DNA from: Lachnospiraceae bacterium
GTDB taxonomy: Bacteria > Bacillota > Clostridia > Lachnospirales > Lachnospiraceae
DNA: 64,000 nucleotides
Assembly: GCA_017517305.1 (NCBI GenBank)
Contig: JAFWZV010000011.1
Location: 102,192-166,191 of the forward strand
Direction of reading: 5' to 3'
Shown here: one piece after another, positions 21,634 to 47,872 of the stretch
How positions within the stretch are numbered: the stretch's first letter is position 1
Layout of the letters: each line of letters opens with the position of its first letter
Program-made: the position numbers and the translations under genes
The notes under the pieces: generated by a model
Told to the model about the DNA's origin: nothing
Databases searched by the model: none
What the model saw: only the letters and a program-made list of their open reading frames with translations

Positions 21634-21667
21634 GGGCTGGGCCAGTACAGTATATTCGCACAGCCCC
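21634..21667. repeat. Truncated copy of the CCTAGGCAGG/GGCCAGTA element, terminator-like
   Basis: GGGCTG (21634-21639) pairs with CAGCCC (21661-21666). The loop holds GGCCAGTA and TATATTCGCA, which match the right half of the larger elements at 45399 and 47796. The left half is missing. It lies between two convergent genes, as do two of the other copies. Confidence 0.65.
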
Positions 21668-21682
21668 ACAGAAATGATGTTG

Positions 21683-22303
21683 CTATTTCACATTTGATTT
21701 GATATTATTTAATTTGTTTATTATTGAGGATTTGTTAATGGTATCAAGGTTTTCAGCCACCTTTATAAGAAGGTCGATATCATTATTATGTCCCTTGGAC
21801 TTGTAAATCTCAGCCAGTAAGGTGAAGGTTTCACTTATATCCGAGCCTATGCTTAAGGAAAAACTTAAGAACTCCTTGGCAGCAGACACATTTCCCAACT
21901 CTATCAGCTCTTTGCCGATTGAATTAAGAAGTCTTATTAGCTTAAGGTAGTTGCCATCGTAATAGGATAGGGCTTCTAGATTAGCAGGTCCATACATCAG
22001 CTTAAGCTGAGTGTTAGTGTACATAGAAAGATTAATAATCTTTTCGGATGCCAGTGCTTCAAGCTCCTTGGCCCTATGGGACAAGGCGGGAAGGAGAGCA
22101 TCCATAGGGAGAAGAGAAAGGTCTAATACAATATAAGCAAGCTGTGAAATATCAGCCTTTCTAACCTGATTGGCCCTTGATTCCTGCTCCCAAAAGCTTC
22201 TGGTGTTCCTTGATGTGACTTGTTTAGAGCGAGAAATTCCTCTAGCCACCACGAAGGCACCCCAGAATAACAAAACTATAAGAAACCAGTTAATGTATTT
22301 CAT
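21683..22303 (-). CDS. Membrane-anchored protein of unknown function, TPR-like
   Basis: A 206-residue protein with one N-terminal membrane segment (residues 4-20) and a soluble, Leu/Ala-rich helical domain whose final third resembles a TPR pair (KEFLSFSLSIGSDISETFTLLAEIYKSKGHN). I do not recognise a named family. It is convergent with the DUF815 ATPase and divergent from the small peptide gene at 22330. The helical repeats suggest protein binding at the membrane. Confidence 0.6.
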   Translation of the reverse strand: MKYINWFLIVLLFWGAFVVARGISRSKQVTSRNTRSFWEQESRANQVRKADISQLAYIVLDLSLLPMDALLPALSHRAKELEALASEKIINLSMYTNTQLKLMYGPANLEALSYYDGNYLKLIRLLNSIGKELIELGNVSAAKEFLSFSLSIGSDISETFTLLAEIYKSKGHNNDIDLLIKVAENLDTINKSSIINKLNNIKSNVK

Positions 22304-22329
22304 AAGGTAATATCCTTTCGGAGGTAAGT

Positions 22330-22428
22330 ATGATTGATTTTAGTAACAAGAAAAAGATGAGAACAATTTCATTAGTAATCGTAATAGCTGTATGTGTAGC
22401 TATGGTATTAGGTCTTCTTGTTGCCTAG
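22330..22428 (+). CDS. 32-residue single-span membrane peptide
   Basis: ATG 22330 follows CGGAGG with good spacing. The peptide begins with a polar, Lys-rich segment (MIDFSNKKKMRT) and continues as one hydrophobic helix to the C-terminus. The clean ribosome site and positive-inside layout argue that it is real, but short open frames occur by chance and no homology can be tested here. Confidence 0.5.
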   Translation: MIDFSNKKKMRTISLVIVIAVCVAMVLGLLVA

Positions 22429-22487
22429 CAATAGGATAACACGCAGGATAAAAATTTTCAACCAAAGCGGTTGGTCAGGAGACTTAT

Positions 22488-23477
22488 ATGGAACAGGGAA
22501 CCCTAGGTGAGCTTTACCTTACTCGTTCAGTAACAAAGCATATTAGAAAACATAATAAGGCTGTAATTGTAGGAAACGGAGTGGGGAAGGACTATTCCCT
22601 AGTTAAGGCTGAGTCAGGATATATGGTTCAGTCAGAGGCTGTGGCAGAGTCCCCTTATATAGCGTGGGTAAAGGCCATTAATAATATTTGTGTGTCAGGT
22701 GGCGACATAGCTGGAGTAAGACTTTGCTATATGCTTCCGATAGATACCGATGAGGCTATGCTTAAGGAATTTGCAGGGGAATTTAATTCCATGGCAGATA
22801 AACAGGGTATTCAGATTGTCGGAGGTAACACTAGGATAAGCTCAGCTTATAGTAGACCAAGCTTTTTGGTGGAGGCACTTGGCAATGTTACAGCGGAAGC
22901 TGTATTACCACTGAAAGCTAAGGCAGACTATCATATAGTAATGGTTGGATACACAGCTATTCTTGGAACCAATCTAATTGTGGATGACAAATGCAAGGAC
23001 TTGCAGGAAAGATTTGCAGGAAGCTATATTGAAGAATGTAGTTTTTCTGAGAACGAATATTCCATTGGGGATATGGTAGCCGGGGTGAAGGTTTGTGCTA
23101 AGGAAACAGAAGTGGTTTATATGCATGATGTATCCTACGGTGGCGTATATGGAGCACTTTGGCAGTTGGGAGAGGCCCTAAAGCTAGGTGTTAAGGTTGA
23201 ACATAGAAGCATTCCTATAAGGCAGGAAACTGTAGAAATATGTAATTATTTTGATATAAATCCCTATATGCTAGAGGGAACAGGAGCTGTCCTTGTGGTG
23301 GCAAGAGACGGGGAAGGCTTAGTTAATAAGCTTAACCAGGCGGGATATGTTGCGTCTTCTATAGGAAGACTTACTCAGAATAAGGATCGAATAGTGGTGC
23401 TTAATACTGAGGGTGAAAAAAGATTTTTAGCACCTATTAAGGGTGATGAAATATATAAGGTTATAGCCGCATACTAA
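22488..23477 (+). CDS. AIR-synthase-related protein (PurM/HypE/ThiL superfamily)
   Basis: A 329-residue protein with the superfamily pattern: an N-terminal GxGxDYSLV-like nucleotide segment, NNICVSGGDIAGV, the VGGNTRI motif and a C-terminal half with SYGGVYGAL. Members use ATP to activate an amide, carboxyl or phosphate group. The lack of neighbouring hydrogenase or purine genes means the specific reaction is unknown. It may be co-transcribed with the Lrp regulator and aminotransferase downstream. Confidence 0.78.
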   Translation: MEQGTLGELYLTRSVTKHIRKHNKAVIVGNGVGKDYSLVKAESGYMVQSEAVAESPYIAWVKAINNICVSGGDIAGVRLCYMLPIDTDEAMLKEFAGEFNSMADKQGIQIVGGNTRISSAYSRPSFLVEALGNVTAEAVLPLKAKADYHIVMVGYTAILGTNLIVDDKCKDLQERFAGSYIEECSFSENEYSIGDMVAGVKVCAKETEVVYMHDVSYGGVYGALWQLGEALKLGVKVEHRSIPIRQETVEICNYFDINPYMLEGTGAVLVVARDGEGLVNKLNQAGYVASSIGRLTQNKDRIVVLNTEGEKRFLAPIKGDEIYKVIAAY

Positions 23478-23532
23478 TGTAAGATAAGTAAGTGGTGTGG
23501 AAATAACCAATAACAAAAAGCGAGGTAAGAGT

Positions 23533-24015
23533 ATGAACAACGACATTTTAAAGCTTCTTGAAAATGACAGTAGACTTACAGTTAAAGATATAGCCAGTAT
23601 GCTTGGTTTAGATGAGGCGGCGGTGGCCGCGGATATTAAGGCCATGGAGGATAGTAAGGTAATCTGTGGTTACCATACTATGATTGACTGGGATAAGGTT
23701 GCAGAGGAAAAGGTAACAGCCCTTATTGAGGTTAAGGTTACTCCACAGAGAGGCCAGGGCTTTGACAAGATTGCTGAGAGAATATATAACTACGAGGAGG
23801 TTAATGCAGTTTACCTTATGGCAGGTGCATTTGACTTTACAGTAATTATTCAGGGTAAGACTCTTAGAGAGGTATCACGCTTCGTATCTGAGAAGCTTGC
23901 TGTTATGGAGACAGTAATCAGTACATCAACACATTTTGTACTTAAAAAATATAAGGACCATGGCATAAAGTTTGACATGGTTAAGAAAGATGAAAGGTTG
24001 GCAATAGTACCATAA
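23533..24015 (+). CDS. Lrp/AsnC family transcriptional regulator
   Basis: A 160-residue regulator. The N-terminal winged HTH (LLENDSRLTVKDIASMLGLD) is followed by an effector domain of the RAM type (VTALIEVKVTPQRG, then VYLMAGAFDFTVIIQG). The frame is open from 23497 but ATG 23533 after GAGGTAAGAG gives the normal start. Its stop overlaps the aminotransferase start as TAATG, so an amino-acid-responsive role in that gene's control is likely. Confidence 0.92.
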   Translation: MNNDILKLLENDSRLTVKDIASMLGLDEAAVAADIKAMEDSKVICGYHTMIDWDKVAEEKVTALIEVKVTPQRGQGFDKIAERIYNYEEVNAVYLMAGAFDFTVIIQGKTLREVSRFVSEKLAVMETVISTSTHFVLKKYKDHGIKFDMVKKDERLAIVP

Positions 24016-25184
24016 TGAGAAATCCATTATCACAAACAATTACAAATATAAAGCCATCAGGCATCAGAAAGTTTTTCGATATCGTAAGCGAGATGCCAGA
24101 TGCAATATCTCTTGGTGTTGGTGAGCCTGACTTCGATACACCTTGGCATATAAGAGAAGAGGGTATCTACTCTCTTGAAAAGGGTAAAACCTTTTATACT
24201 TCAAACTCAGGTCTCCTTGAGCTTAGAGAGGAAATCTGTAAGTGGTATAAGAGAAAATATAATGTGGACTATGATTACAAGAAGGAGGCGCTTATTACCG
24301 TAGGTGGTAGTGAGGGTATAGACCTTGCCTTTAGAGCTATGCTTGATCCAGGGGATGAAGTTATTATTCCAGAGCCTTGCTATGTATCATATGTTCCTTG
24401 TGTTGAGCTTGCAGGTGGTGTGCCTGTGACCATAGCACTTAAGAATGAGAATCAGTTTAGACTTACTCCAGAGGAGCTTCTTGCGGCTATAACTGACAAG
24501 ACTAAGATTCTTATACTTGCATATCCTAGCAACCCTACAGGAGCTATAATGACCAAGGAAGACCTTGAGCCTATAGCTAAAATCTGTCAGGAGAAGGATA
24601 TATTTGTTATATCAGACGAGATTTATTCAGAGCTTACATATGGAGACGCACAGCATTGTACCATCGGTTCCCTTCCAGGTATGAAGGAGAGAACAATTAT
24701 TATAAATGGTTTCTCTAAGGCTTACGCTATGACGGGATGGAGACTTGGATATGCCCTTGCACCTCAGCTTATTGCAGAGCAGATGACTAAGGTTCATCAG
24801 TTTGCAATTATGTGTGCTCCAACTACTAGTCAGTACGCAGCTATTAGCGCTATCAAGGAGGGGGACAAGGATATTGAGCGTATGAGGACCTCATACGACC
24901 AGAGAAGACATTTCCTTATGAAGACCTTTGAGGAGATGGGACTTCCTTGCTTTGAGCCACTTGGAGCATTCTATATGTTTCCATGTATTAAGGAGTTTGG
25001 CATGACTTCCGATGAGTTTGCCACAAGACTTCTTCAGGAGGAGGAACTTGCGGTAGTGCCGGGAACTGCCTTTGGTGATTGTGGTGAGGGCTTCCTTAGA
25101 ATTTCTTATGCGTATTCAATTGATGAGCTTAGAGAGGCTATGAAGAGGCTGGCTGCATTTATAGGAAGACTTAGAGATAAATAA
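24015..25184 (+). CDS. PLP-dependent class I/II aminotransferase
   Basis: A 389-residue fold-type I aminotransferase. The PLP lysine is Lys235 in NGFSKAYAMTGWRLGYA; SNPTG (172-176) and the C-terminal Arg segment EGFLRISYA are present. It is closest in feel to the AspC/PatA-like enzymes acting on aspartate or aromatic amino acids; the exact substrate is not decidable. It is coupled to the upstream Lrp gene by a TAATG overlap, a common pairing in Clostridia. Confidence 0.92.
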   Translation: MRNPLSQTITNIKPSGIRKFFDIVSEMPDAISLGVGEPDFDTPWHIREEGIYSLEKGKTFYTSNSGLLELREEICKWYKRKYNVDYDYKKEALITVGGSEGIDLAFRAMLDPGDEVIIPEPCYVSYVPCVELAGGVPVTIALKNENQFRLTPEELLAAITDKTKILILAYPSNPTGAIMTKEDLEPIAKICQEKDIFVISDEIYSELTYGDAQHCTIGSLPGMKERTIIINGFSKAYAMTGWRLGYALAPQLIAEQMTKVHQFAIMCAPTTSQYAAISAIKEGDKDIERMRTSYDQRRHFLMKTFEEMGLPCFEPLGAFYMFPCIKEFGMTSDEFATRLLQEEELAVVPGTAFGDCGEGFLRISYAYSIDELREAMKRLAAFIGRLRDK

Positions 25185-25211
25185 TATAAAATATAAAGAG
25201 GGTTGATTTTA

Positions 25212-25703
25212 ATGCTTAATGTTATTTTGCTTGAACCAGAGATGCCTGCAAACACAGGGAATATCGGTCGTACCTGCGTAGCTACCGGTATAAGACTGCA
25301 TTTGATAGAACCCCTCGGTTTCGAGATTAATGACAAGCAGCTTAAAAGAGCTGGTCTTGATTATTGGCCTAGGTTAGATGTTACAGTTTATGAGGATTAT
25401 GAGGATTTTAAGAGAAAGAATCCTGATGCTAAAGTTTATATGGCCACAACTAAATCTAAACAAAAATATACAGATGTTAATTATCCAGAGGATGCTTATA
25501 TTATGTTTGGCCCTGAGAGTAGAGGTATACCAGAGGAGATACTTTTGGAGAACAAGGATACTTGTGTGAGAATCCCAATGATGCCGGAGGAGAGGTCTCT
25601 TAATCTCTCTAATTCTGTTGCAATTATGGTATATGAGGCACTTAGGCAACAGGGTTTTCCTGGCCTTGAGAAAGAAGGGCAGCTACATAGATATGAGTGG
25701 TAG
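25212..25703 (+). CDS. trmL: tRNA (cytidine/uridine-34 2'-O)-methyltransferase TrmL
   Basis: A 163-residue SPOUT enzyme with the trefoil-knot motifs NTGNIGRTC at the N-terminus, FGPESRGIP in the middle and the motif IPMMPEERSLNLSNSVAI near the end. It methylates the wobble ribose of leucine tRNAs. ATG 25212 is preferred over TTG 25203 on ribosome-site spacing. A terminator follows immediately. Confidence 0.96.
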   Translation: MLNVILLEPEMPANTGNIGRTCVATGIRLHLIEPLGFEINDKQLKRAGLDYWPRLDVTVYEDYEDFKRKNPDAKVYMATTKSKQKYTDVNYPEDAYIMFGPESRGIPEEILLENKDTCVRIPMMPEERSLNLSNSVAIMVYEALRQQGFPGLEKEGQLHRYEW

Positions 25704-25746
25704 AAAAATTTCCAGTGATGAAATAAGAGTCACTGGAAATTTTTTG
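25703..25746 (+). terminator. Intrinsic terminator after trmL
   Basis: AAATTTCCAGTGA pairs with TCACTGGAAATTT across an 11-base loop and is followed by TTTT. It begins directly after the stop codon. Confidence 0.88.
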
Positions 25747-25794
25747 TGGATATGAGGTGTTGTATACTCACACAAGACTGAGAAAATATTATAT

Positions 25795-25823
25795 TTGGGC
25801 ATATAGAGGAAATGTGTTAGAAT
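25795..25823 (+). promoter_or_regulatory. Putative promoter of the radical SAM gene
   Basis: TTGGGC and TAGAAT are separated by 17 bases, located about 110 bases before the start codon and after a terminator. The -35 match is partial. Confidence 0.4.
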
Positions 25824-25934
25824 AGACCCAGGTGGAGGAATAAAATCAGAAAGAAACAATAAAAACATGGGCTGTAGGGAAGAAAAAAGCTATATAGTCC
25901 AAAGGAAATCAACAAGAGGATAAGGAGAATTCAA

Positions 25935-26990
25935 ATGAATTATGTTGATTGGCTAGACAAGCCATATTATTCATTAAATGCATATTTTAAAAATACATAC
26001 GGCCAAAAAATATATAAGATTGCAGTGAATGCAGGACTGTCTTGCCCAAATAGAGATGGAAATCTTGATACTAGAGGATGTATATTTTGTAGCAAAGGTG
26101 GAAGTGGAGACTTTGCTGTGAAGCTTGATGAGAGCCTGGGTGATGAGTTAGCTGTCCAGACAGATGGAAAAGCTAGTGCTGGTAGGAAAATACTCTCTGT
26201 GAAGCAGCAGATAGTTCAAGGGAAGTCACGCTTTAATAAGGAAGCAGGAGATAGGTTTGTTATATATTTTCAAGCCTTCACTAACACCTATGGAAATCCT
26301 GAATATCTTAGAAGAATCTGGACAGAGGCCTTAGAAGAGGAAAATGTTGTAGGAATTTCCATAGCAACAAGGCCAGATTGCCTAGGTAAAGAGATTATGG
26401 AGGTGCTACGGGAACTGCAGGACAAATTCTGCAGTGAATTGGATAGTCATAGTAAATTCATCTGGGTAGAGCTTGGTCTTCAGAGCATTCATGACAAAAC
26501 GGCAGAATATATTAGAAGACATTACCCATTATCAGAGTATGAGGAGGCTGTGAGAAAGCTTCATAAGTTAAGCATACCCTATATTACACATGTGATTTTG
26601 GGACTTCCTGGGGAGACCAAAGAAGAAATGTTAGAGACGGTGTTTTATGTGGAGCAGGGGGTATTTGAACAAGATAGCCATAGTAAGATAAAACCTTTCG
26701 GTATAAAGCTACAGCTACTTCATGTGTTGGAGGACACAGATTTAGCGAAGGATTACAGACAAGGAAAGTTCCAGACTATGGAAATGGATGAGTATATTGA
26801 TTTGGTTATAGATGCTTTGCAAAGAATTAATCCTGAGATAGTAATCCATAGGGTAACAGGTGACGGACCAAAGAATATACTTATTGCGCCTACATGGTCA
26901 GGCAATAAAAAGATGGTTCTTAACACCTTACATAAGAGGATGAAGGAAAGGGAAGCAAGACAGGGAGATTATTCTATTATGCTATGGTAG
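25935..26990 (+). CDS. Radical SAM protein, YhcC/TIGR01212 family
   Basis: A 351-residue radical SAM protein. The cluster-binding cysteines have the unusual family spacing Cys37, Cys49, Cys52 (CPNRDGNLDTRGCIFC). The following VGISIATRPDC, WVELGLQSIH and HVILGLPGETKEEM segments match the YhcC group, related to Elp3-like enzymes. The reaction is not established for this family. The start ATG follows AAGGAG. Confidence 0.9.
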   Translation: MNYVDWLDKPYYSLNAYFKNTYGQKIYKIAVNAGLSCPNRDGNLDTRGCIFCSKGGSGDFAVKLDESLGDELAVQTDGKASAGRKILSVKQQIVQGKSRFNKEAGDRFVIYFQAFTNTYGNPEYLRRIWTEALEEENVVGISIATRPDCLGKEIMEVLRELQDKFCSELDSHSKFIWVELGLQSIHDKTAEYIRRHYPLSEYEEAVRKLHKLSIPYITHVILGLPGETKEEMLETVFYVEQGVFEQDSHSKIKPFGIKLQLLHVLEDTDLAKDYRQGKFQTMEMDEYIDLVIDALQRINPEIVIHRVTGDGPKNILIAPTWSGNKKMVLNTLHKRMKEREARQGDYSIMLW

Positions 26991-27120
26991 AATATTCTTG
27001 AAAAAAACAACAAAATACGATACTATAGAATTGGATTTTTGCAATTGGGTATTGGGAAGGCAAAATATCCTGGAGAATAGTTTTTACTTAACGAAAATAC
27101 ACTAGAAAAGGGGTTAGGGA

Positions 27121-28038
27121 ATGAGATTAGTTACACGTTCAGATTTTGATGGATTAGCATGTGGAGCGCTTCTTAAGGAGGCAGGAATTATTGATTGTTG
27201 GACATTTGCCCATCCAAAGGATTTGCAGGATGGACTTATACCTGTTACAGAGAATGATTGTTTGGCAAATGTACCATTTGTAGAGGGTTGTGGACTTTGG
27301 TTTGATCACCACTCAAGTGAGCATGAGAGATTAGAGCTTGAGGGAAAGTACAAGGGTGAGAGTAGAATTACTCCTTCATGTGCTAGAATTATATATGAGT
27401 ATTATGGTGGAAAGGAAAGATTTCCACAGTTTGATGATATGATGGAAGCAGTTGATAAGGTTGATTCAGGTAACCTTACTGTGGACGAGATTCTTAATCC
27501 TACTGGTTGGATTCTTATCGGATTTTTAATGGATCCTAGAACTGGACTTGGACGTTGGAGAAACTTTACTATTCCTAACTATAAGCTTATGGAGGAGCTT
27601 ATTGATGCCTGCAGAACTATGACTACAGAGGAGATTCTTAACCTCTCTGACGTTAAGGAGCGTATCGAGGTTTACAATGAGCAGACTGAGAAGTTTAAGG
27701 AGATGGTTAAGGCTCACACAAGAGTTGAGAAGGATGTTATTATTACAGATCTTCGTGGCGTGGACCCTATCTACACAGGTAACAGATTTATGATTTACAG
27801 CCTTTATCCAGAGCAGAATATCTCAGCATGGATAGTAAATGGTAAGGGTGGTAAGGGCTGTTCAGCAGCAGTTGGATATAGTATTATTAACAAGACTTCA
27901 AATGTTGACGTAGGAAGCCTTATGCTTAAGTACGGTGGCGGTGGTCACAGGAAGGTAGGAACCTGTCAGTTTACAGATGAGAATATGGATGAGATGCTTC
28001 CAAAGATGCTTGATGAGCTTGTAAACGGAGCAAAATAA
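27121..28038 (+). CDS. DHH superfamily phosphoesterase-like protein
   Basis: A 305-residue protein with an N-terminal DFDG motif (residues 8-11), the DHH triad at residues 62-64 (FDHHSSEH) and a C-terminal GGGGHRKVG motif of the DHHA1 type. This architecture covers exopolyphosphatase-like and oligoribonuclease (NrnA-like) enzymes. The precise substrate is not clear. It is monocistronic, with its own terminator downstream. Confidence 0.87.
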   Translation: MRLVTRSDFDGLACGALLKEAGIIDCWTFAHPKDLQDGLIPVTENDCLANVPFVEGCGLWFDHHSSEHERLELEGKYKGESRITPSCARIIYEYYGGKERFPQFDDMMEAVDKVDSGNLTVDEILNPTGWILIGFLMDPRTGLGRWRNFTIPNYKLMEELIDACRTMTTEEILNLSDVKERIEVYNEQTEKFKEMVKAHTRVEKDVIITDLRGVDPIYTGNRFMIYSLYPEQNISAWIVNGKGGKGCSAAVGYSIINKTSNVDVGSLMLKYGGGGHRKVGTCQFTDENMDEMLPKMLDELVNGAK

Positions 28039-28059
28039 AAATCTATCGTCGGAAATATT

Positions 28060-28097
28060 AACCGAATCGAAGAGAAATCTTCGGTTCGGTTTTTTGT
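28060..28097 (+). terminator. Intrinsic terminator after the DHH gene
   Basis: A 14-bp stem with one G-T wobble (AACCGAATCGAAGA against TCTTCGGTTCGGTT) closed by a GAAA tetraloop and followed by TTTTTT. Confidence 0.93.
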
Positions 28098-28249
28098 TTT
28101 TTAAATTTGCTGAGAAGGCTTCTAAAGCTAGAAAATAAAAGGGATTCATAAATGTTGTGACAAGCGTACAGCAAGCTTTTCATAAGAGAGAAATTCACAG
28201 TTTTTTCACAAAATGTGTAAAAACCTAACATTGGTGTAAAAAATTAGCC

Positions 28250-28288
28250 TTTACGATATTTGTACGAAGGTGATATATTTTTTGTACG
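28250..28288 (+). promoter_or_regulatory. Candidate Tad operon promoter flanked by direct repeats
   Basis: TTTACG (28250-28255) and TATATT (28274-28279), 18 bases apart, could be the promoter. The octamer TTTGTACG occurs twice (28259-28266 and 28281-28288), exactly 22 bases apart, around the -10 region. Such two-turn direct repeats are typical of dimeric activator sites. The upstream part of this gene-free stretch (28097-28249) is AT-rich and shows nothing else that I can name. Confidence 0.4.
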
Positions 28289-28289
28289 G

Positions 28290-28485
28290 TCAGCAGCTCA
28301 TGCTGAACTTAGTATTCTAGATTTTGCAGTGGTTTTTAATTCTCATGTAAAACCCAGGTTACCACTACGTATAGTTTAGGTTACCTACATGGAAATCCCC
28401 ATAAAATAATAATTGGAAAATTGGAATAATTAGATGAACAGAAAAATTGAACACTCTTTGCCACTGCAAAATCTAATATAGGAGG
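28290..28485 (+). ncRNA. Structured leader of the Tad operon, candidate cis-regulatory RNA
   Basis: A short hairpin (TCAGCA/TGCTGA, 28290-28306) is followed by a perfect 15-bp inverted repeat: 28318-28332 (TAGATTTTGCAGTGG) with 28461-28475. Within it are nested helices: CATGTA (28344-28349) with TACATG (28386-28391), GGTTACC (28357-28363) with GGTTACC (28379-28385, one T-T mismatch), and ACTA/TAGT closing a CGTA loop. The long stem ends five bases before the GGAGG ribosome site (28481). I do not recognise a known riboswitch class. A miniature transposable element with 15-bp ends is an alternative reading. Confidence 0.55.
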
Positions 28486-28493
28486 AAATCATT

Positions 28494-28964
28494 CTGAGCG
28501 CATATATAGTTATTAATATTTTAATTTTTGTGACAGTGGCTATGGTGTTTGACCTTAAGACTGGGAAAATTCCTAATTGGTATAATTTGGCTTGGCTGAT
28601 ATACGGATTAGTGTTGATAGGTTTTTTGAAAGGTGGTAAGGGACTGATATTAGGGATTTTTGGTGGTTTGATTCCAGTGATTGGGTTGATGGTGTTGTTT
28701 GTCTGGGGAGTGTTGGGGGCAGGGGACATAAAGCTTCTTGGTGTTATTGGCGTATTTGTAGGTTTGGATGTTGTATGGATTGTAATATATAGCTTTCTCC
28801 TGTGTGGAATATATGGTGGAGGCTTGGTGCTTACCAGGATAGTGAGGATGTTGGTTAAATCATCTGGCTGGAAATATGGGCACACTAAGGTGGCATTTTC
28901 AGTATTTATTCTGGGTGGCTTTATTTGGTACATATGCAAAGGGGGAGTTAACCTTGGAATATAG
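28494..28964 (+). CDS. Prepilin peptidase, A24/TadV (CpaA) family
   Basis: A membrane aspartyl protease of about 156 residues that would cut the Flp prepilin encoded at 33290. The catalytic aspartates are in VFDLKTGKIPN (about residue 20) and GAGDIKLL (about residue 78). No ATG lies near the ribosome site GGAGG at 28481-28485; in-frame CTG 28494 or ATT 28491 have the correct spacing and restore the first membrane helix, whereas GTG 28530 would remove it. It is the first gene of the Tad operon and overlaps the next gene. Confidence 0.85.
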   Translation: MSAYIVINILIFVTVAMVFDLKTGKIPNWYNLAWLIYGLVLIGFLKGGKGLILGIFGGLIPVIGLMVLFVWGVLGAGDIKLLGVIGVFVGLDVVWIVIYSFLLCGIYGGGLVLTRIVRMLVKSSGWKYGHTKVAFSVFILGGFIWYICKGGVNLGI

Positions 28965-31842: not shown

Positions 31843-31844
31843 AA

Positions 31845-37039: not shown

Positions 37040-37069
37040 ATTGGTATCAATATGAAGGGCGGTGGAAGG

Positions 37070-37249: not shown

Positions 37250-37303
37250 AAAAGAAAAAATATAATACATAACATAAACAGTTAATATAAGGCTGGATTA
37301 AGG

Positions 37304-37338: not shown

Positions 37339-37415
37339 TTGTATTTACCCCATATTTTTGGTATAGTATTGGTTAGGTGTAGAGTTAAAAAATTTACTTA
37401 ACAGAGGTGAATAAA

Positions 37416-38426: not shown

Positions 38427-38458
38427 TTAATTTTAGATATAGAGAGCGAGGTAGCCAT

Positions 38459-40123: not shown

Positions 40124-40141
40124 AAATAGGAGGATTAAAAA

Positions 40142-40489: not shown

Positions 40490-41088
40490 TGGACATTTAC
40501 GGAGGACAGGTTGGTAAGCTTATAGAAGAGCTTTCGGGACTTCCGGGAATAGGTGGGAAGACTGCCCAAAGATTAGCATTTCATATTATCAATATGCCTG
40601 AGGATAGAGCGAAAAGTCTCTCTGAGGCTATAATAAATGCTAAGACCAACATAAAATATTGCAAAAGCTGTTATACTATAACTGATAGGGAAGAGTGTCC
40701 AATATGCTCATCCCCTAAGAGAGATCACAAGTTAATAATGGTAGTGGAAAGTCCTAGGGACTTAGCGGCCTATGAGAGATGTGGTCAGTATCAGGGTGTG
40801 TACCACGTACTACACGGAGTAATGAATCCTGCCCTTGGTATGGGACCAAACGACATAAAACTAAAGGAGCTCATCCTTAGACTGGAAGCAGAGGATGTGG
40901 AGGAAATCATCATCGCCACAAATTCCAGTGTAGAAGGAGAAGCCACTGCTATGTACATTTCTAAGTTAGTAAAACCATCGGGAATAAAGACAACCCGAAT
41001 AGCAAGCGGAGTCCCTGTAGGTGGAGATCTAGAATGCATAGACGAGGTTACGCTACTTAGAGCCCTAGAAGGTCGAATCGACCTATAA
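40489..41088 (+). CDS. recR: Recombination mediator protein RecR
   Basis: A 199-residue protein. An N-terminal helix-hairpin-helix ([16 protein letters not shown]) is followed by a zinc finger (Cys58, Cys61, Cys70, Cys73) and a Toprim domain ([14 protein letters not shown], then [13 protein letters not shown]). With RecO it loads RecA on gapped DNA. It ends the dnaX cluster. Confidence 0.97.
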
Positions 41089-41141
41089 GGTCAACCCGAC
41101 TGTGGACGATGCATAATTAATCTCGATGTAAACGATGCACA

Positions 41142-41266
41142 GCACAGAATGTGCCAAAAAATTTTATTCCGGCCGCGCCAGGGTGATGCGCAGCTGACCG
41201 TTTTAAGGTCAGCGAAGCATTATCCCTAGGCAGGCCGGCCAGTATGTAAATATGCGCATTCTGTGC
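41142..41266. repeat. Expanded copy of the CCTAGGCAGG/GGCCAGTA structured element
   Basis: Outer stem: GCACAGAATGTGC (41142-41154) with 41254-41266 (13 bp, one wobble). Inner stem: CCGGCC (41169-41174) with GGCCGG (41233-41238). Between them lie an extra GCGC/GCGC hairpin (41175-41191) and a perfect 7-bp hairpin GCTGACC/GGTCAGC (41193-41213), then the core CCCTAGGCAGG. It is the only copy between two same-direction genes (recR and pfkA). The rest of this 212-base gap shows no gene. Confidence 0.75.
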
Positions 41267-41300
41267 ATGAAAGAGACAAGAAGAAAAGGAGGTAGTTACT

Positions 41301-42380
41301 ATGAAGAGAATTGGTATGCTTACAAGTGGAGGCGATTGCCAGGCACTTAATGCAACAATGAGAGGTGTTGTTAAGGGGTTATATAACACATTTGATGAAG
41401 TTGAAGTATATGGTTTCTTAGAGGGATACAAGGGCCTTATCTATGGAAACTATAAGAAGCTTTCAGCTGATGACTTTTCTGGAATACTTACTAAGGGTGG
41501 AACAATTCTTGGAAGCTCAAGAACACCATTTAAGCAGATTGATGAGCCAACTCCAGAGGGCTATAACAAGGTTGAGAAGATGAAGGAGACCTATAAAAAG
41601 CTCAAGCTTGATTGCCTTGTAGTATTAGGTGGTAATGGTTCACAGAAGACTGCAAATCGTCTTAGTGAGGAGGGCTTAAATGTTATTGGTTGCCCTAAGA
41701 CTATAGACAATGATATCTGGGGAACAGATATGACCTTTGGCTTCCAGAGCGCAGTTGATATAGCTACAAATGCTATTGACTGTATTCATACAACAGCAGC
41801 TTCTCACAACAGAGTATTCATAGTTGAGGTTATGGGTCACAAGGTTGGCTGGATAACTCTTCATGCAGGTATTGCATCGGGAGCAGACATTATCCTTATA
41901 CCTGAGATACCATACGATATAAAGAAGGTTGCTAAGGCTCTTGAGAAGAGAACCAAGGCTGGAAAGGGCTTCTCCATACTTGCAGTAGCTGAGGGAGCAA
42001 TTTCTAAGGAGGTTGCAGAGCTTCCTAAGAAGGAGAGAAAGGCAGCTATTGCAGCTGCAGCTGAGAAGTACCCATCAGTTGCTTATGAGGTAGCTGATAA
42101 GATTAAAGAATTCTGTGGTATGGACATAAGAGTGACAGTTCCTGGACATACTCAGAGAGGTGGAAGTCCAGTTCCTTACGACAGAGTTATCTCAAGTCGT
42201 TTTGGTGCTAAGGCAGCAGAGCTTATTAAGGAGAAGGATTTCGGTAAGCTTGTAGTTATGAAGAACAATGAGGTTGATGCAATTCCGCTTAGCGAGACAG
42301 CAGGAAAGCTTAAGTATGTATCACCTGATGATAAGATAATTGCAGAGGCAAAGACATTAGGAATTTCTTTTGGAGATTAA
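41301..42380 (+). CDS. pfkA: 6-phosphofructokinase
   Basis: A 359-residue glycolytic enzyme. GGDCQ (residues 10-14), GGNGS (110-114) and PKTIDND (132-138, catalytic Asp136) mark the active site. Relative to E. coli numbering, residue 103 is Asn instead of Asp, 104 is Gly, and 124 is Lys. The Gly104/Lys124 combination is reported for ATP-dependent enzymes of the PPi-PFK-related groups, so ATP is the more likely phosphoryl donor, but PPi cannot be excluded. The start follows AAAGGAGG. Confidence 0.95.
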   Translation: MKRIGMLTSGGDCQALNATMRGVVKGLYNTFDEVEVYGFLEGYKGLIYGNYKKLSADDFSGILTKGGTILGSSRTPFKQIDEPTPEGYNKVEKMKETYKKLKLDCLVVLGGNGSQKTANRLSEEGLNVIGCPKTIDNDIWGTDMTFGFQSAVDIATNAIDCIHTTAASHNRVFIVEVMGHKVGWITLHAGIASGADIILIPEIPYDIKKVAKALEKRTKAGKGFSILAVAEGAISKEVAELPKKERKAAIAAAAEKYPSVAYEVADKIKEFCGMDIRVTVPGHTQRGGSPVPYDRVISSRFGAKAAELIKEKDFGKLVVMKNNEVDAIPLSETAGKLKYVSPDDKIIAEAKTLGISFGD

Positions 42381-42409
42381 CAACTTATAGTTAACTCACA
42401 TATATTATT

Positions 42410-42454
42410 ATAAGTAGACTATGGGAGATGATACATTTTCCATAGTCTGCTTAT
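42410..42454 (+). terminator. Possible terminator hairpin after pfkA
   Basis: ATAAGTAGACTATGG pairs with 42440-42454 over 15 positions (one T-G wobble) with a 15-base loop. No T run follows (GAAAATAAA), so it may instead control the gene that starts 25 bases later. Confidence 0.5.
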
Positions 42455-42479
42455 GAAAATAAATTATGTGAGGGTGGAT

Positions 42480-42827
42480 ATGAGAGAAGATATATTAAGA
42501 CAGAGAATGGTGCTTCCGGAGCTTCAGCTTGTTGATGAGGCAGAGCTTGAGGAGGACAGAGAATATCTTATGCAGATGTATCCTGCTAAGGCTAGGCTGA
42601 TAATGGTTATGGTGGAGGATGAATGCGACAAGATGGAATACGAGGGCAGTCCAATGTTTGCCCCATACCCAGATAAGGAGACTATACTTGGTTTATCTGG
42701 AAAAATTTTCAATAAGGTTACATTTGATAGAAATGATCAGCATCTAAGACATTTGATAGATGTGATGATGTGTAATGAAATCTATATTAGACGAAATAGA
42801 TATAAAAGAAGGAGAAAATTCTTTTAG
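42480..42827 (+). CDS. Conserved protein of unknown function
   Basis: About 115 residues, soluble, with an acidic first half (LPELQLVDEAELEEDREYL) and a very basic end (YIRRNRYKRRRKFF). I do not recognise a family. ATG 42480 after GAGGGTGG is the probable start; an upstream in-frame ATG at 42453 lies in the hairpin and has no ribosome site. It is three bases from the next gene and probably co-translated with it. Confidence 0.65.
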   Translation: MREDILRQRMVLPELQLVDEAELEEDREYLMQMYPAKARLIMVMVEDECDKMEYEGSPMFAPYPDKETILGLSGKIFNKVTFDRNDQHLRHLIDVMMCNEIYIRRNRYKRRRKFF

Positions 42828-42830
42828 CTT

Positions 42831-45380
42831 ATGAAGAAGAATATTATACTGAAAGTCATAGTCTTTGTTGTAATGGCGACTGTGACTGCTTTTTTTGTAA
42901 ATAAATTAAACAACGCAGGAATTGACAAGGTGGCTAAGGAAATGGGTGAGCCTACCTTGCCTATTGTATATTGCCAGGTGGAGGGTGATGTGGTCAATAG
43001 AATGTTTGGCTACACACATACCATGTCCACCAGTCTTATGCGAGAAGGTATAGTACCCCTTAATGAACAACATGGTGTAACATTGCTTGTAAATGACGAA
43101 TACAAATTCGGCAAGAAATATTCCTATCAGCTAAGAAGTATAGCTGGTGACTCTCTGGTTGAAGAGGGAGAGCTGGAATTAGGCTCTTTGGTTAGTGGAT
43201 ATAAGCAGTGTAATGTTGTGTTCAGAATGGACCTTAAGGAAAACCAGGAGTATGTTCTTGTGTTTATGGTAGAGGGTAAGGATGGTAGAACAGCAAGATA
43301 CTATACAAGAGTTGTGGATTTGGAGAAAAACAGTGCTCACAAGATAGTTGAGTATGCACATGAATTCCACAATACTGCAATTAAGAAAACCTCCAGTGCT
43401 GTTGCCAATAACGTGGTTTATGATGCTTTGCAATATACCGGATTTGATTATTATGATGACCTATCTCATGTAGATATAGCGGCGTCCTATAAGCTTATGA
43501 CCTTTGGTGAGCTTAAGCCAAATGTTATTACAGAGGTTGCTACAACCATAACAGAGATAGACAAGGATTATACAGTTGTGCATCTACAGTATGTTATGGA
43601 GGCAGAATCCGGTGGCGCCACTCACTATTATAATGTGGATGAGTATTATACAGGGGTATATAACCAAAGTAATGGAAGCGTAGAGCTGCTTGATTATCAT
43701 AGATATCAGGAGTCTATGTTTGATACAGAATATATTTACAAGGATAGTAACAGTATAGCCTTCGGTGTTACTAGTGATGATGATATAGAGTATGTAACTG
43801 CAGAGGACAATGAAAAGCTTGCCTTTGTCAGAGAGGGAGAGCTTTGGTATTACGATTATGCTACAACCAGTGTTACCAGTGTATTCAGCTTCAATCAGGG
43901 AAACTACACTGATATTAGAAGTATGAATCAAAATATGGATATAAATATTGTTAGCATGGATGATGATGGAGAGATGTATTTTGTGGTTTACGGCTACATG
44001 TGCCGTGGTGACCATGAGGGTAAAAATGGAATCTCCCTATATCATTTCAGTCCAAAAGATTACAAGATCGAGGAGCTGTTCTTCGTGGCGGTTGACGAAC
44101 CATTTGACATAATGAGACAGGAGACAGGACGCTTTACCTACTATGATAAGAAGGGACATTTCTTCTATCTCTTAGATGGAGCAATATATGATGTGGATCT
44201 TATGACTATGGAACAGACTACACTGTCAGAGGGACTTTCTTCTGACAAATATGCTGTGTCAGAGAACAGAAGAGTTGTGGCTTATCCAAATAATAGCTTG
44301 AAAGAAAATACCACAGCTATAGTAATTCGAGACTTTGCTACAGGTGATGTAACCTATGAAACTGGAGGGGAAAATGATAGATTTGACGCCTTAGGTTTTG
44401 TTGGTGATGATCTTATTATGGGCGTGGCTGATGTGGGAGATGTTTATGTGCCTTCTGATGGAGAGGCGATACTGCCTTTCTACAAGCTAAATATAATAAG
44501 TCCAATAGGTGAGGTTCTTAAGGAATATCAGAAATCCAGTGTGTACATTATGGATGCAGAGGTTCAGTCTGATAAGATTTATCTGACACGAGGAATTAAG
44601 AGAAACAACTTCTTCGAGGATGCAGAGCCAGACTTTATATCCTATAAGCCTAGAGAGGATGAAAATGCAATGATTAAGAAGACTGTCTATGATATGGCAG
44701 CCTTTGATGAGGAGCATCTTATATTCCCTTCTTATATATACATTAGCGAAAGCAACAGATATATTATGACCAAAGGAAAGGTTAATGATAGATATAAGGC
44801 TATGGAGGTTAAGACTAGCACAAATCCAGAATCCTTCTATGTATTTAACAATGTGGGATATGTAGGAGAATATGCTAGTGCAGGTACAGCTATAATAGCT
44901 GTAAATGAAATGGCAGCCGGTCAGGTAGTGGATAGCAAGGGTAATACCGTATATAGAAGTATAGCTGCGGATTCTTATAATACTGTAGCTGATCAGCTCT
45001 ACGAGGTGCCATGTAATACTATAGACCAATCCTTGCTAACCTGTGCATATATCTGTATGGAATATGAGGGAAATAGAGTGGAGCTTGACGAAATACTAGC
45101 TTGTAGTAGCTGGGAGGAAGCTTTTGAAAAGTATACCTTGGGAGTTGGAATCAACATATCAGGTATAGACCTATCAACTGCCCTATACTTCCTAGATAGA
45201 GATATACCATTTGCCGCCTGCATAGACGACGGCAGATACGTACTTGTGATTAGTTACAATGAAGCTGCTGTAAGATACTACGACCCGATTCTTGATGAAG
45301 AGGTGAGAGTATACAGAGATGAATTTGAAGAGTCGCTAAGCAAGCAGGGAAATACGATGTATACTTATACGGCTCAGTGA
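42831..45380 (+). CDS. Membrane-anchored extracytoplasmic protein with a possible beta-propeller and C39-like end
   Basis: An 849-residue protein with one N-terminal membrane helix (about residues 5-22). The middle (about 250-620) has repeated Tyr/Asp-rich beta segments that read like a propeller (GELWYYDYATTS, GISLYHFSPKD, GAIYDVDLMT). The last 120 residues resemble a peptidase C39-like fold: Cys738 lies in SLLTCAYICMEY, and DGRYVLVISY and YYDPILDEE follow, but Arg802-Tyr803 stands where the catalytic His would be expected. It may be a non-catalytic relative. Function is unknown; it is coupled to the 42480 gene. Confidence 0.6.
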   Translation: MKKNIILKVIVFVVMATVTAFFVNKLNNAGIDKVAKEMGEPTLPIVYCQVEGDVVNRMFGYTHTMSTSLMREGIVPLNEQHGVTLLVNDEYKFGKKYSYQLRSIAGDSLVEEGELELGSLVSGYKQCNVVFRMDLKENQEYVLVFMVEGKDGRTARYYTRVVDLEKNSAHKIVEYAHEFHNTAIKKTSSAVANNVVYDALQYTGFDYYDDLSHVDIAASYKLMTFGELKPNVITEVATTITEIDKDYTVVHLQYVMEAESGGATHYYNVDEYYTGVYNQSNGSVELLDYHRYQESMFDTEYIYKDSNSIAFGVTSDDDIEYVTAEDNEKLAFVREGELWYYDYATTSVTSVFSFNQGNYTDIRSMNQNMDINIVSMDDDGEMYFVVYGYMCRGDHEGKNGISLYHFSPKDYKIEELFFVAVDEPFDIMRQETGRFTYYDKKGHFFYLLDGAIYDVDLMTMEQTTLSEGLSSDKYAVSENRRVVAYPNNSLKENTTAIVIRDFATGDVTYETGGENDRFDALGFVGDDLIMGVADVGDVYVPSDGEAILPFYKLNIISPIGEVLKEYQKSSVYIMDAEVQSDKIYLTRGIKRNNFFEDAEPDFISYKPREDENAMIKKTVYDMAAFDEEHLIFPSYIYISESNRYIMTKGKVNDRYKAMEVKTSTNPESFYVFNNVGYVGEYASAGTAIIAVNEMAAGQVVDSKGNTVYRSIAADSYNTVADQLYEVPCNTIDQSLLTCAYICMEYEGNRVELDEILACSSWEEAFEKYTLGVGINISGIDLSTALYFLDRDIPFAACIDDGRYVLVISYNEAAVRYYDPILDEEVRVYRDEFEESLSKQGNTMYTYTAQ

Positions 45381-45398
45381 TGAAAGATAAGACAAATT

Positions 45399-45475
45399 AA
45401 AAGACGGTGCGAGATAATCTACAATCCGACCACCCTAGGCAGGTCGGCCAGTAAACTATATACGCACCGTCTTTT
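45399..45475. repeat. CCTAGGCAGG/GGCCAGTA structured element between convergent genes
   Basis: Outer stem: AAAAGACGGTGCG (45399-45411) with 45463-45475, 13 perfect pairs. Inner stem: CCGACC (45426-45431) with GGTCGG (45442-45447) around the loop ACCCTAGGCA. The A-rich left and T-rich right ends make it a bidirectional terminator for the 42831 gene and lysA. Compared with the copy at 47796, both stems differ by paired changes. Confidence 0.82.
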
Positions 45476-45483
45476 GTTATGTG

Positions 45484-46734
45484 TTACGCTTCCCAGAATC
45501 CATCTAGTGTAGCGAAGTAATCTTCAACAGTTTCGGCTCTACGAATCATCTTAACAGAACCATCCCCCTTAAGAAGAAGCTCAGATGACTTAAGCTTTCC
45601 GTTATAGTTATAACCCATTGCAAAGCCGTGGGCACCAGTATCGTGTATAACCAGATAATCGCCCTTGTCAATCTTAGGAAGCTTTCTGTCAATGGCGAAT
45701 TTGTCGTTGTTCTCACACAGAGAACCTGTAACATCATACATATAATCGCAAGGTTCATTTTCCTTACCAAGTACTGTGATGTGGTGGTAAGCACCATACA
45801 TAGCAGGTCTCATAAGGTTAACTGCACAAGCGTCCACTCCAATGTACTCCTTGTGAGTATGCTTCTCGTGAATTGCCTTAGTAACCAGATGACCATAAGG
45901 TGCAAGCATGAATCTTCCAAGCTCTGTAAAGATACTTAAATCTCCAAGACCAGCAGGAACTAATACCTCCTCGAATGCCTTTCTAACACCTTCACCGATA
46001 ACCATAATATCATTAGGCTCCTTGTCTGGAGTGTAAGGAATTCCAATACCGCCTGAAAGGTTGATGAAACTAAGCTCTATGCCGGTTTCATTTTTAAGCT
46101 CTACTGCAAGCTCAAATAAAAGCTTGGCAAGAGTAGGATAATATTCATTGGTTACAGTGTTGCTGGCAAGGAAGGAGTGGAGACCAAATCTCTTGGCACC
46201 GGCTTCCTTAAGCTCTACATAAGCCTTGAAAAGCTGCTCCTTGGTCATACCATACTTAGCATCTCCAGGGTTGTCCATAATAGTTGTAGAAATTGAAAAT
46301 GTTCCACCTGGATTGTATCTACAGGAGATAGTCTCAGGAATACCGCAGGTATCCTTCAAAAACTGTACGTGAGTATAATCGTCAAGGTTGATGGTAGCAC
46401 CAAGCTTTCTTGCATATACAAACTCCTCAGCAGGAGTATCATTTGAAGAGAACATAATTTCATCACCAACGATACCTATCTTCTCTGACATAAGAAGCTC
46501 TGCGTAAGATGAGCAATCAGTGCCGCAACCCTCTTCGTGTAAAATTCTAAGAATAGTTGGGTTAGGAGTCGCCTTTACTGCAAAATACTCCTTGTAGCCC
46601 TTGTTCCATGAAAAAGCTTCCTTAAGCTTTCTTGCATTCTCTCTGATTGCCTTTTCGTCATATATGTGAAATGGTGTAGGAAAATCCTTAACAATATTTT
46701 CCACCATCTCTTTGGTTACAAATGCCTTTTTCAT
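45484..46734 (-). CDS. lysA: Diaminopimelate decarboxylase
   Basis: A 416-residue fold-type III PLP enzyme. PLP-binding Lys54 lies in YFAVKATPNP, the HSFLASN segment is in the middle of the barrel, and SGGIGIPYTP and CGxxC-type active-site residues (VTGSLCENND) follow. It makes lysine from meso-diaminopimelate. The frame opens at 46800, but ATG at 46734 follows GGAGG on the minus strand. Some related enzymes act on carboxynorspermidine, but no polyamine genes are nearby. Confidence 0.88.
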   Translation of the reverse strand: MKKAFVTKEMVENIVKDFPTPFHIYDEKAIRENARKLKEAFSWNKGYKEYFAVKATPNPTILRILHEEGCGTDCSSYAELLMSEKIGIVGDEIMFSSNDTPAEEFVYARKLGATINLDDYTHVQFLKDTCGIPETISCRYNPGGTFSISTTIMDNPGDAKYGMTKEQLFKAYVELKEAGAKRFGLHSFLASNTVTNEYYPTLAKLLFELAVELKNETGIELSFINLSGGIGIPYTPDKEPNDIMVIGEGVRKAFEEVLVPAGLGDLSIFTELGRFMLAPYGHLVTKAIHEKHTHKEYIGVDACAVNLMRPAMYGAYHHITVLGKENEPCDYMYDVTGSLCENNDKFAIDRKLPKIDKGDYLVIHDTGAHGFAMGYNYNGKLKSSELLLKGDGSVKMIRRAETVEDYFATLDGFWEA

Positions 46735-46940
46735 AGTAAACCTCCGATGTATAAAAAATAAGATATTCCTTAATTTATTGATAAATGAAGCATTTGTCAA
46801 TAGATATAGGGAAAAAACACGATAAAGTTACACACTAAAGTTCACAAAAAGTTGAGATTTATACTTTGGAAATGGGGTGGAAATTGTTTCTCTCTTATGA
46901 TAAGATTTATAAGGATTTTGAACAAAGGAGTTAATGTGAC

Positions 46941-47759
46941 ATGTCAGTAGATGGAATGAATTATGATAATATGTTTATCAGATTGCTTAATAGATTAGGA
47001 GATGCAATGATACTATCCCTAATGTTTATTATAGGAAGCTTGCCTATAATAACTATTGGAACCTCTATGACCGCTACCTATTATGCGGCTATGAAGGGTG
47101 TTCAGGGAGATGATGGTTATGTGTTTAAAAACTACATCAAGAGCTACAAAGAAAACCTTAAGCAGTCAATAGTAATATGGCTTATTATGGCAGTAGTTTT
47201 ATTCGTATTCGGAGTAGACCTTTGGTTTTGGCTAAAGCAGTGGCAGGATGCAAGAGTTAGTATTGCAAAGCCTATGATTGCAGTAAGCGTTGTGCTACTT
47301 GCTGTAGCAGTGTTTATCACTATGTATGTATTTCCACTTCAGGCTAAGTTTGATAATAAAACATCAGTACAGATAAGAAATGCGTTCCTTCTTTCAATCA
47401 AGAACTTTCCAACTACACTTTTGCTTGTGGTGTTAACGGTTGTGATTGTTTGGTGCTTCTATTATCAGGTGGCAATATCAGTGGTTGCTTTTGGTTTGTT
47501 TGGGTTTGGATTTTGTGCATATATTTATGCATATTTTATGTTGAATTGTTTAAAACCATATTTGGAGCCTGTACCTGAGAAGGCACCTGATGAGTGGAAG
47601 GTTGAACTTGAGGGTGAAGAAGATGATGAGGAGGAAACCTCAGAAGAAGATGATAAGGAAGAATCCGCAGAGGACCAATCCCAAGAGATAGAAGAGGAAG
47701 AAGATTCCGCAGAGGAAGAAACCCAAGACGCAGAAGACGAAAACAAAGAAAGTGAATAG
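46941..47759 (+). CDS. DUF624 (YesL-like) membrane protein
   Basis: A 272-residue protein with about five membrane helices in residues 20-205 and the DUF624 start (NRLGDAMILSLMFIIGSLPI, then GTSMTATYYAA). The last 70 residues are an extremely acidic tail of Glu, Asp and Ser. Family members are usually next to sugar-transport genes; this one is not. The tail is cytoplasmic and may bind basic proteins or cations. Confidence 0.85.
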   Translation: MSVDGMNYDNMFIRLLNRLGDAMILSLMFIIGSLPIITIGTSMTATYYAAMKGVQGDDGYVFKNYIKSYKENLKQSIVIWLIMAVVLFVFGVDLWFWLKQWQDARVSIAKPMIAVSVVLLAVAVFITMYVFPLQAKFDNKTSVQIRNAFLLSIKNFPTTLLLVVLTVVIVWCFYYQVAISVVAFGLFGFGFCAYIYAYFMLNCLKPYLEPVPEKAPDEWKVELEGEEDDEEETSEEDDKEESAEDQSQEIEEEEDSAEEETQDAEDENKESE

Positions 47760-47795
47760 TGGAAGAAAACCAGAATAGTTTTTGATGGAAATGAA

Positions 47796-47872
47796 AAAAG
47801 CTGTGCGAGAAAATTTACATTCCGGCTCCACCCTAGGCAGGCCGGCCAGTAAATTATATTCGCACAGCTTTT
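47796..47872. repeat. CCTAGGCAGG/GGCCAGTA structured element between convergent genes
   Basis: Three nested helices: AAAAGCTGTGCG (47796-47807) with 47861-47872, AATTTAC (47812-47818) with GTAAATT (47849-47855), and CCGGC (47822-47826) with GCCGG (47841-47845). The loop contains CCACCCTAGGCAG. It lies between the DUF624 gene and the cyclophilin gene and would terminate both. Confidence 0.85.

What the first reader, a model, noticed from the sequence alone, without database searches (positions are those of the whole stretch)
21634..47872. Dispersed family of nested-hairpin elements with a CCTAGGCAGG/GGCCAGTA core
Copies at 41142-41266, 45399-45475 and 47796-47872 share the core ACCCTAGGCAGG(C/T)CGGCCAGTA inside two or three nested stems; a half copy is at 21634-21667. 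The inner stem is CCGGC/GCCGG in one and CCGACC/GGTCGG in another, and the outer stems differ entirely but always pair: compensating changes. Three of four lie between convergent genes. This is a repeat family under structural selection, perhaps a terminator combined with a mobile or protein-binding module.
Basis: seen in the sequence. Interest (0 to 1): 0.78.

Follow-up and report, generated by a model that had tools for sequence, protein, structure and literature searches.

The report
Gene-end hairpin repeats with swapping cores
About 45 copies of a roughly 125-base DNA hairpin lie mostly at the ends of genes in this gut bacterium and its near relatives; a conserved inner hairpin appears to be copied from site to site independently of the outer stem, which often looks like a transcription stop signal.

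Summary
The core is repeated genome-wide: 43 places by covariance model, plus an interrupted copy, a half copy and the 21634 remnant. The unit is a nested hairpin: a variable outer stem P1, spacers most often 14/15 nt, P2, a conserved asymmetric loop, P3, an internal loop, P4. Covariation far exceeds shuffled and slid controls. Of 43 copies, 28 lie between convergent and 1 between divergent genes.

I found it in one Lachnospiraceae genus only: 7 of 37 genomes with R1, diverged in two of them. Homologous gaps in relatives carry inverted or nested copies, a bare stem or plain terminator-like hairpins. Inner modules are up to 100% identical at sites with unrelated outer stems. In 23 of 31 shared-gap comparisons the closest inner module is a paralogue.

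Best reading: a non-autonomous hairpin DNA repeat that spreads by copying its inner module between gene ends; P1 often looks like a terminator. No Y1 (REP-type) transposase was found beyond a fragment in one of 7 carriers. The mover is unknown.

The parts
41142..41266 (+). Copy 1, full-length element, between two co-directional ORFs (leader of the pfkA-like ORF 41301-42380)
   Evidence: R1 123.7 bits
41142..41154 (+). Copy 1 P1 left arm GCACAGAATGTGC
41254..41266 (+). Copy 1 P1 right arm GCGCATTCTGTGC
41169..41174 (+). Copy 1 P2 left arm CCGGCC (right arm 41233-41238)
41175..41180 (+). Conserved loop strand GCGCCA (mostly GCGMCA in the family), opposite TAGGCA at 41227-41232
41181..41189 (+). 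Copy 1 P3 left arm GGGTGATGC (right arm 41217-41226)
41193..41213 (+). Copy 1 P4 hairpin GCTGAC...GTCAGC
41225..41244 (+). Core CCTAGGCAGGCCGGCCAGTA of copy 1
45399..45475 (+). Copy 2, short form (P3-P4 missing), between convergent ORFs; P1 45399-45411/45463-45475 extends into A and T runs; P2 45426-45431/45442-45447
45434..45453 (+). Core of copy 2
47796..47872 (+). Copy 3, short form, between convergent ORFs; P1 47796-47808/47860-47872; P2 47822-47826/47841-47845
47832..47851 (+). Core of copy 3
21634..21666 (+). Remnant: P1 GGGCTG/CAGCCC enclosing only the right spacer GGCCAGTACAGTATATTCG; inner module absent; between convergent ORFs
   Evidence: compare the bare-stem form in relative G008

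Best explanation
A lineage-restricted family of nested-hairpin DNA repeats, MITE-like and non-autonomous, that spreads by copying between sites. Shown: about 45 dispersed copies of one architecture; an inner module (P2, conserved asymmetric loop, P3, P4) that is shared between sites independently of the outer stem P1; turnover, inversion and nesting in homologous gaps; placement mostly downstream of genes, rarely between divergent ones. Inferred: the conserved loops are recognised in folded DNA by a trans-acting recombinase, or by repair factors acting on hairpins, which insert or convert the module at hairpin tips, including terminator hairpins. Inferred: where P1 is flanked by A and T runs the host uses it as a bidirectional intrinsic terminator, so insertions at gene ends are harmless or useful and persist.
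For: 42 core matches against 0 in control; 43 places by model. Covariation: 172 both-side cells against 53 shuffled, score 0.348 against 0.115 shuffled and at most 0.130 slid; with six members of the diverged subfamily and 14 others, 0.536 against 0.168 and at most 0.157. Both alignments were made without structure, but the structures tested were derived from them. Inner modules of L032 and L033 are identical over 79 nt while the innermost 10 P1 positions match at 2; 16 of 630 pairs reach inner identity 0.95. Best inner match is a paralogue in 23, the orthologue in 7, tie in 1, of 31 comparisons (one of 32 rows dropped). P1 is nearly the same while the inner module differs at the L036, L039 and L045 sites. 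In 22 own-genome gaps aligned to G008 (by eye): element in 12, bare stem in 1, plain terminator-like hairpin in 7, neither in 2. Inverted at what looks like the same position: L035 and L046 in G008, L023 in G011. Whole elements nested inside older ones at 3 sites (G011 twice, G008 once). Convergent 28, co-directional 14, divergent 1 of 43; background gaps 53, 263, 63 of 379. T run (5 of 8) beside P1 on at least one side in 28 of 38, on both in 18 of 38.
Against: No transposase was identified, and no copy in the own genome carries a gene between its halves. No target-site duplication could be defined and no clean empty site among closely related strains was available. Nesting is only 3 sites, too few to prove tip targeting. 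In the L023 and L026 gaps the G008 element lies at a different position from the own one. Half of the parsed P1 arms (19 of 38) contain TGTGC, so P1 is not simply a pre-existing local terminator in every case. Ten of 38 own copies lack a T run on either side; only 6 of 30 G014/G024 rows have one, by a slightly different rule. Choosing the best of 39 paralogues favours paralogues. P3 shows G-U over A-C (8 to 0 fitted, 12 to 2 on A2), and P1 stems parsed with a scorer that rewards G-T gave 27 to 5; both fit RNA folding in the motif sense.
Confidence: 0.6

Rival explanations
1. A host RNA element: the hairpin is transcribed at mRNA 3' ends and in some 5' leaders, and its conserved loops bind a protein or RNase that sets mRNA stability; copies are kept for this use.
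For: Placement downstream of genes; some copies close upstream of ribosome-binding sites (pfkA-like, PTS-like, hydF-like; named by eye) also hold elements at the same place in relatives; structure strongly conserved; G-U over A-C in P3 and in the parsed P1 stems.
Against: Motif orientation relative to co-directional genes is 7 same, 7 opposite, and some copies are inverted at shared sites, so the loops would be read as different RNAs. G-U barely exceeds A-C over all stems: 31 to 24 of 2098 cells on a fitted alignment, 34 to 18 of 1176 on A2, against 11 to 0 of 155 in a small set of 7 tRNAs. No Rfam match at threshold in the window; only sub-threshold matches elsewhere.
Confidence: 0.15
2. Ordinary bidirectional terminators whose arms stay complementary because hairpins template their own repair (quasi-palindrome correction), with ectopic gene conversion exchanging the inner part; no transposition to new sites.
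For: Plain terminator-like hairpins occupy 7 of 22 homologous gaps in G008; both P1 arms change together at shared sites in at least 8 of 21 parsed comparisons (by eye; of 28 rows 6 were not parsed and one was mis-parsed); no transposase found.
Against: Conversion alone does not easily explain whole elements nested in others or elements in gaps where G008 has an unrelated hairpin; the conserved mismatched loop resists correction to a perfect palindrome; most G014/G024 rows lack T runs.
Confidence: 0.2
3. A REP element mobilised by a RAYT (Y1) transposase.
For: Palindromes at gene ends in many copies, as in REPs.
Against: No PF01797 in own genome; none in 6 of 7 carriers and only a fragment in the seventh, while 4 non-carriers also have none; far longer than 20-40 bp; no consistent GTAG beside P1 (by eye).
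Confidence: 0.03

Closest known systems
ERIC/IRU and NEMIS/Correia small mobile repeats (review PMC2229807, passages read)
   Same: About 100-200 bp, strongly folded, many copies, often intergenic, thought mobile without a proven transposase, some effect on mRNA.
   Different: Both are listed there with terminal inverted repeats and TA ends; here no common terminal sequence is seen (38 distinct parsed outer arms, half sharing TGTGC) and the conserved part is inside. Reported there from other bacteria.
REP/BIME with RAYT; GTAG- and CGTC-tagged repeats (PMC3733652 passages and abstract; PMC2817692 abstract)
   Same: Palindromes mostly downstream of genes; CGTC repeats also lack a dedicated transposase; 9 of 30 G014/G024 rows have GTC directly after the parsed P1 right arm.
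   Different: REPs are 20-40 bp hairpins with an unpaired tag; this is a 125-bp nested hairpin; no consistent tag in the own genome; no full Y1 protein found.
IS elements that insert into REP palindromes, such as IS1397 and ISPpu9 (search listing with abstract starts of PMC1525189 and PMC8450116 only; loop insertion by IS1397 is recalled)
   Same: Insertion into a hairpin repeat.
   Different: Those are IS with a transposase gene; here the inserted unit is a 125-bp hairpin of the same family.
Stem-loop repeat families of bacterial genomes (PMC2267715, abstract and outline)
   Same: Repeated, structured, mostly intergenic families.
   Different: I did not compare sequences with that set; independent inner-module exchange is not in the abstract.

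Membership tests
REP with RAYT | Y1 (IS200/IS605-type) transposase in genomes with the repeat | tested here: not met
   0 in own genome; 6 of 7 carriers without, one 36-position fragment in G015; some carriers are incomplete MAGs (80-99%)
REP with RAYT | 20-40 bp hairpin tagged GTAG or CGTC | tested here: not met
   about 125 bp; own flanks A/T-rich without consistent tag (by eye); GTC after the stem in 9 of 30 G014/G024 rows
MITE/ERIC-like element | Small, non-coding, dispersed, intergenic, structured | tested here: met
MITE/ERIC-like element | Conserved terminal inverted repeats | tested here: not met
   P1 is a terminal inverted repeat but without one common sequence: 38 distinct parsed arms, 32 distinct innermost 8-mers, TGTGC in 19 of 38; the parser misplaced a few stems (L015, L026)
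MITE/ERIC-like element | Target-site duplication and clean empty sites | tested here: inconclusive
   relatives are about 75-97% identical in flanks; empty gaps mostly filled by other hairpins
Intrinsic terminator | GC-rich stem followed by T run at gene end | tested here: inconclusive
   28 of 38 own copies with a T run on at least one side; 6 of 30 G014/G024 rows; termination itself not testable
Known Rfam RNA | Covariance-model match at the curated threshold | tested here: not met
   none in the window at gathering threshold; only sub-threshold matches, the one over an element (L098, mir-628, 27.5 of 75 bits) to an animal microRNA model

The most novel reading that the evidence does not exclude
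A hairpin cassette that inserts into the tips of other hairpins, terminators included: a roughly 107-bp module with conserved loops, flanked by two weakly similar 15-bp spacers, that is exchanged inside unrelated outer stems by an unidentified recombinase recognising folded DNA. The bare-stem form would be its empty acceptor site.
Probability: 0.25. Interest if true: 0.8.

Novelty: new variant of a known kind. Interest (0 to 1): 0.56.

Why it matters
Small structured repeats shape gene ends in bacteria, yet how those without a transposase move is open. Here the part that travels and the part the host may use as a terminator separate, at many sites in five related genomes. That makes it testable whether terminators are hosts for, or products of, mobile hairpins. 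It may also be a case in which compensating changes come from DNA-level copying rather than from RNA function, a trap for RNA-family discovery by covariation.

Tried and rejected
Rfam: nothing relevant. Viral contigs with the core pattern, plasmids and phages with one element (L032): no match. Of 43 stretches with the core in genome contigs, 39 are from four Lachnospiraceae MAGs; the four others (L119, L128, L136, L143) have no R1 match and look like chance. L108, one of the 39, had no R1 match either, and L127 only 17.4 bits; L127 is a short form by eye. Other genera: 1 of 397 genomes, the own one, with each of R1 and R2; only 8 candidates per genome were scored with stricter filters, so relatives could be missed. 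Autonomous copy: the 40 left-half motifs in the own genome all fall in places, one in the interrupted copy L040. Plain terminators with P1-like stems: 2 of 41 in 800 kb of G008, 0 of 2 in the window, 0 of 8 in outgroup loci; too few to decide. Bare-stem forms: 1 by a strict pattern in all loci held then and the window; the 21634 remnant does not pass it; another, L026:1356-1390 in the own genome, was seen by eye opposite a G008 element and folds as a stem. Direct repeat of spacers: 0.52 identity at offset -2, inverted 0.47 at the same offset; weak. Unrelated palindrome in the tip of L040: that string is in 1 of 214 loci. First identity script anchored some relatives wrongly and was replaced; L013/L131 was dropped because the relative has no element there. 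Literature: searches listed no description of this family; I judged from titles and abstract starts, and subscription journals are mostly not held.
Full report
Observation. Genome-wide the core pattern gives 12 exact matches and 42 with up to three mismatches, against none for the reversed pattern. A covariance model built from 36 full copies marks 43 places in 64 rows; the other 21 rows are the same places read on the opposite strand (my count). With an interrupted copy (L040), a half copy (L043) and the 21634 remnant, none of which the model reports, I count 46.

Anatomy. P1 is a stem of 10 to 27 positions (median 14 by the parser, A/T ends included). The 38 left arms parsed are 38 different strings; 19 contain TGTGC and the rest are varied. 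The parser misplaced a few stems, L015 and L026 for instance. Spacers, 14 nt on the left in 19 of 38 and 15 nt on the right in 16 of 38, lead to P2 (usually CCGRCC/GGYCGG), then an asymmetric loop with strands mostly GCGMCA and TAGGCA (partly paired GC/GC), P3 (GGGT.../...ACCC, variable), a G/A-rich internal loop, and P4 (usually GCTGAC/GTCAGC). Copies 2 and 3 of the window are short forms without P3 and P4. Eight sampled copies fold with z-scores from -5.4 to -10.2.

Covariation. On an alignment made without structure, 172 cells change on both sides and still pair, against 53 in shuffles; the score is 0.348 against 0.115 shuffled and at most 0.130 slid. The structure was derived from the same alignment, which favours it over the slid versions. 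In genomes G014 and G024 a diverged subfamily (24 and 7 matches) keeps the architecture with other stems and a different tip; with six of its members added to 14 others the score is 0.536 against 0.168. Compensating changes are real. Their cause is another matter: G-U pairs and A-C mismatches are nearly equal over all stems (31 and 24 of 2098 cells in 64 rows of a fitted alignment; 34 and 18 of 1176 on A2), while seven tRNAs give 11 and 0 of 155. Against this, P3 alone leans to G-U (8 to 0; 12 to 2), and P1 stems parsed with a scorer that rewards G-T gave 27 to 5.

Position. Of 43 copies tested in the own genome (not tested: the places at C2:13420, C8:14775 and the remnant, which is convergent), 28 lie between convergent, 14 between co-directional and 1 between divergent ORFs; background gaps of 40 bases or more in the window and G008 are 53, 263 and 63 (gaps that hold elements are included). 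With a stricter ORF limit the own counts are 25, 16 and 1, with one unresolved. The ORF calls are mechanical: L021, convergent, is not convergent. In G008 it is 11, 12 and 0 of 23; in G014 3, 19 and 0 of the 22 copies tested. So the shared rule is 'downstream of a gene, rarely between divergent genes', rather than 'convergent'. Orientation against co-directional genes is 7 to 7. A few copies lie just upstream of a ribosome-binding site, the pfkA-like copy 1 among them.

Comparison between species. I fetched 800 kb of relative G008 and loci of G005, G011 and G015. By equal contig lengths these correspond to Lachnospiraceae MAGs SIG296, SIG302, RGIG4033 and RGIG8543 (an inference). For 22 own-genome gaps whose two flanks align to G008 (L033 and L034 counted as one), read by eye hold an element there, 1 a bare stem with one spacer (L016), 7 a plain terminator-like hairpin (L006, L007, L015, L027, L028, L029, L039) and 2 neither (L037, L038). 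In two of the 12 (L023, L026) the G008 element lies at a different position in the gap; in the L026 gap the own genome has a bare stem, L026:1356-1390, that looks like the counterpart of the G008 element. At the sites of window copies 2 and 3, G008 has plain hairpins with T runs; at the site of copy 1 G008 has an element, and G011 has a whole element nested inside an older, degraded one (L117). Two more nested cases are L106 (G011) and the L024 gap in G008. Inverted copies at what looks like the same position are L035 and L046 (G008) and L023 (G011); one search scores 5 of 32 rows as inverted.

Inner and outer parts evolve separately. L032 and L033 have identical inner modules (79 nt) and P1 arms that match at 2 of the innermost 10 positions; 16 of 630 pairs reach inner identity of 0.95. 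At shared gaps the closest inner module is a paralogue in 23 of 31 comparisons, the orthologue in 7, a tie in 1, with flank identities of about 75-97% (the best of 39 paralogues is favoured by number, and one comparison without an element in the relative was dropped). P1 is nearly the same while the inner module differs at the L036, L039 and L045 sites; conversely both P1 arms change together in at least 8 of 21 parsed shared-site comparisons (by eye).

Distribution. R1 finds the family in 7 of 37 genomes of the genus; R2 in those and one marginal hit in G028 (E 0.02). In a sample of 397 genomes across the family only the own genome matches (shallow searches). Viral contigs, plasmids and phages give nothing.

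Mechanism. No Y1 transposase was found in the own genome or in 6 of 7 carriers, a fragment in one, none in 4 non-carriers, and no gene-bearing copy in the own genome. I favour a non-autonomous hairpin repeat moved or converted at DNA level, with P1 often serving as terminator: 28 of 38 own copies have a T run on at least one side, 18 on both. In G014/G024 only 6 of 30 rows do, so termination is not the common function of the family. The recombinase, the recognition of folded DNA and termination itself are inferences.

Known kinds. It resembles ERIC/NEMIS-type repeats and REPs (PMC2229807 and PMC3733652 passages; PMC2817692 and PMC2267715 abstracts and outlines) but lacks a common terminal sequence, the REP tag and length, and a Y1 association. 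I file it as a new variant of the structured intergenic repeat kind.

Noticed in passing
L019:1435-1458; L025:1562-1585; L042:1370-1393 and 1563-1586; L205:2146-2169: A second palindromic repeat, CCGGNACATA...TATGTNCCGG, lies beside several elements, in L042 and L141 on both sides; 7 of 256 held loci match, some of them overlapping places.
   Followed up: partly
L040:about 1340-1485: The tip of this element is replaced by a different, larger palindromic insert; relative G005 (L139) has the normal P4 there. A 21-base piece of the insert occurs in no other of the 214 loci then held.
   Followed up: partly
L026:1356-1390: A bare stem with T run in the own genome, opposite a full inverted element in G008 and beside the L026 element: possible element that lost its inner module.
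   Followed up: partly
L234, L217, L236, L228, L240, L242, L232, L251, L253: In the G014/G024 subfamily 9 of 30 rows have GTC directly after the parsed P1 right arm, and several rows have AAACA before the left arm: possible element ends.
   Followed up: partly
window 42398-42469: A long near-perfect AT-rich hairpin after the pfkA-like ORF, overlapping the start of mechanical ORF 42453-42827, unrelated to the family (chance-level matches to microRNA models).
   Followed up: no
L018, L021, L031, L046 (positions about 1400-1600): Elements just upstream of ribosome-binding sites also hold elements at the same place in relatives; some lack a T run, so a leader function is possible.
   Followed up: no
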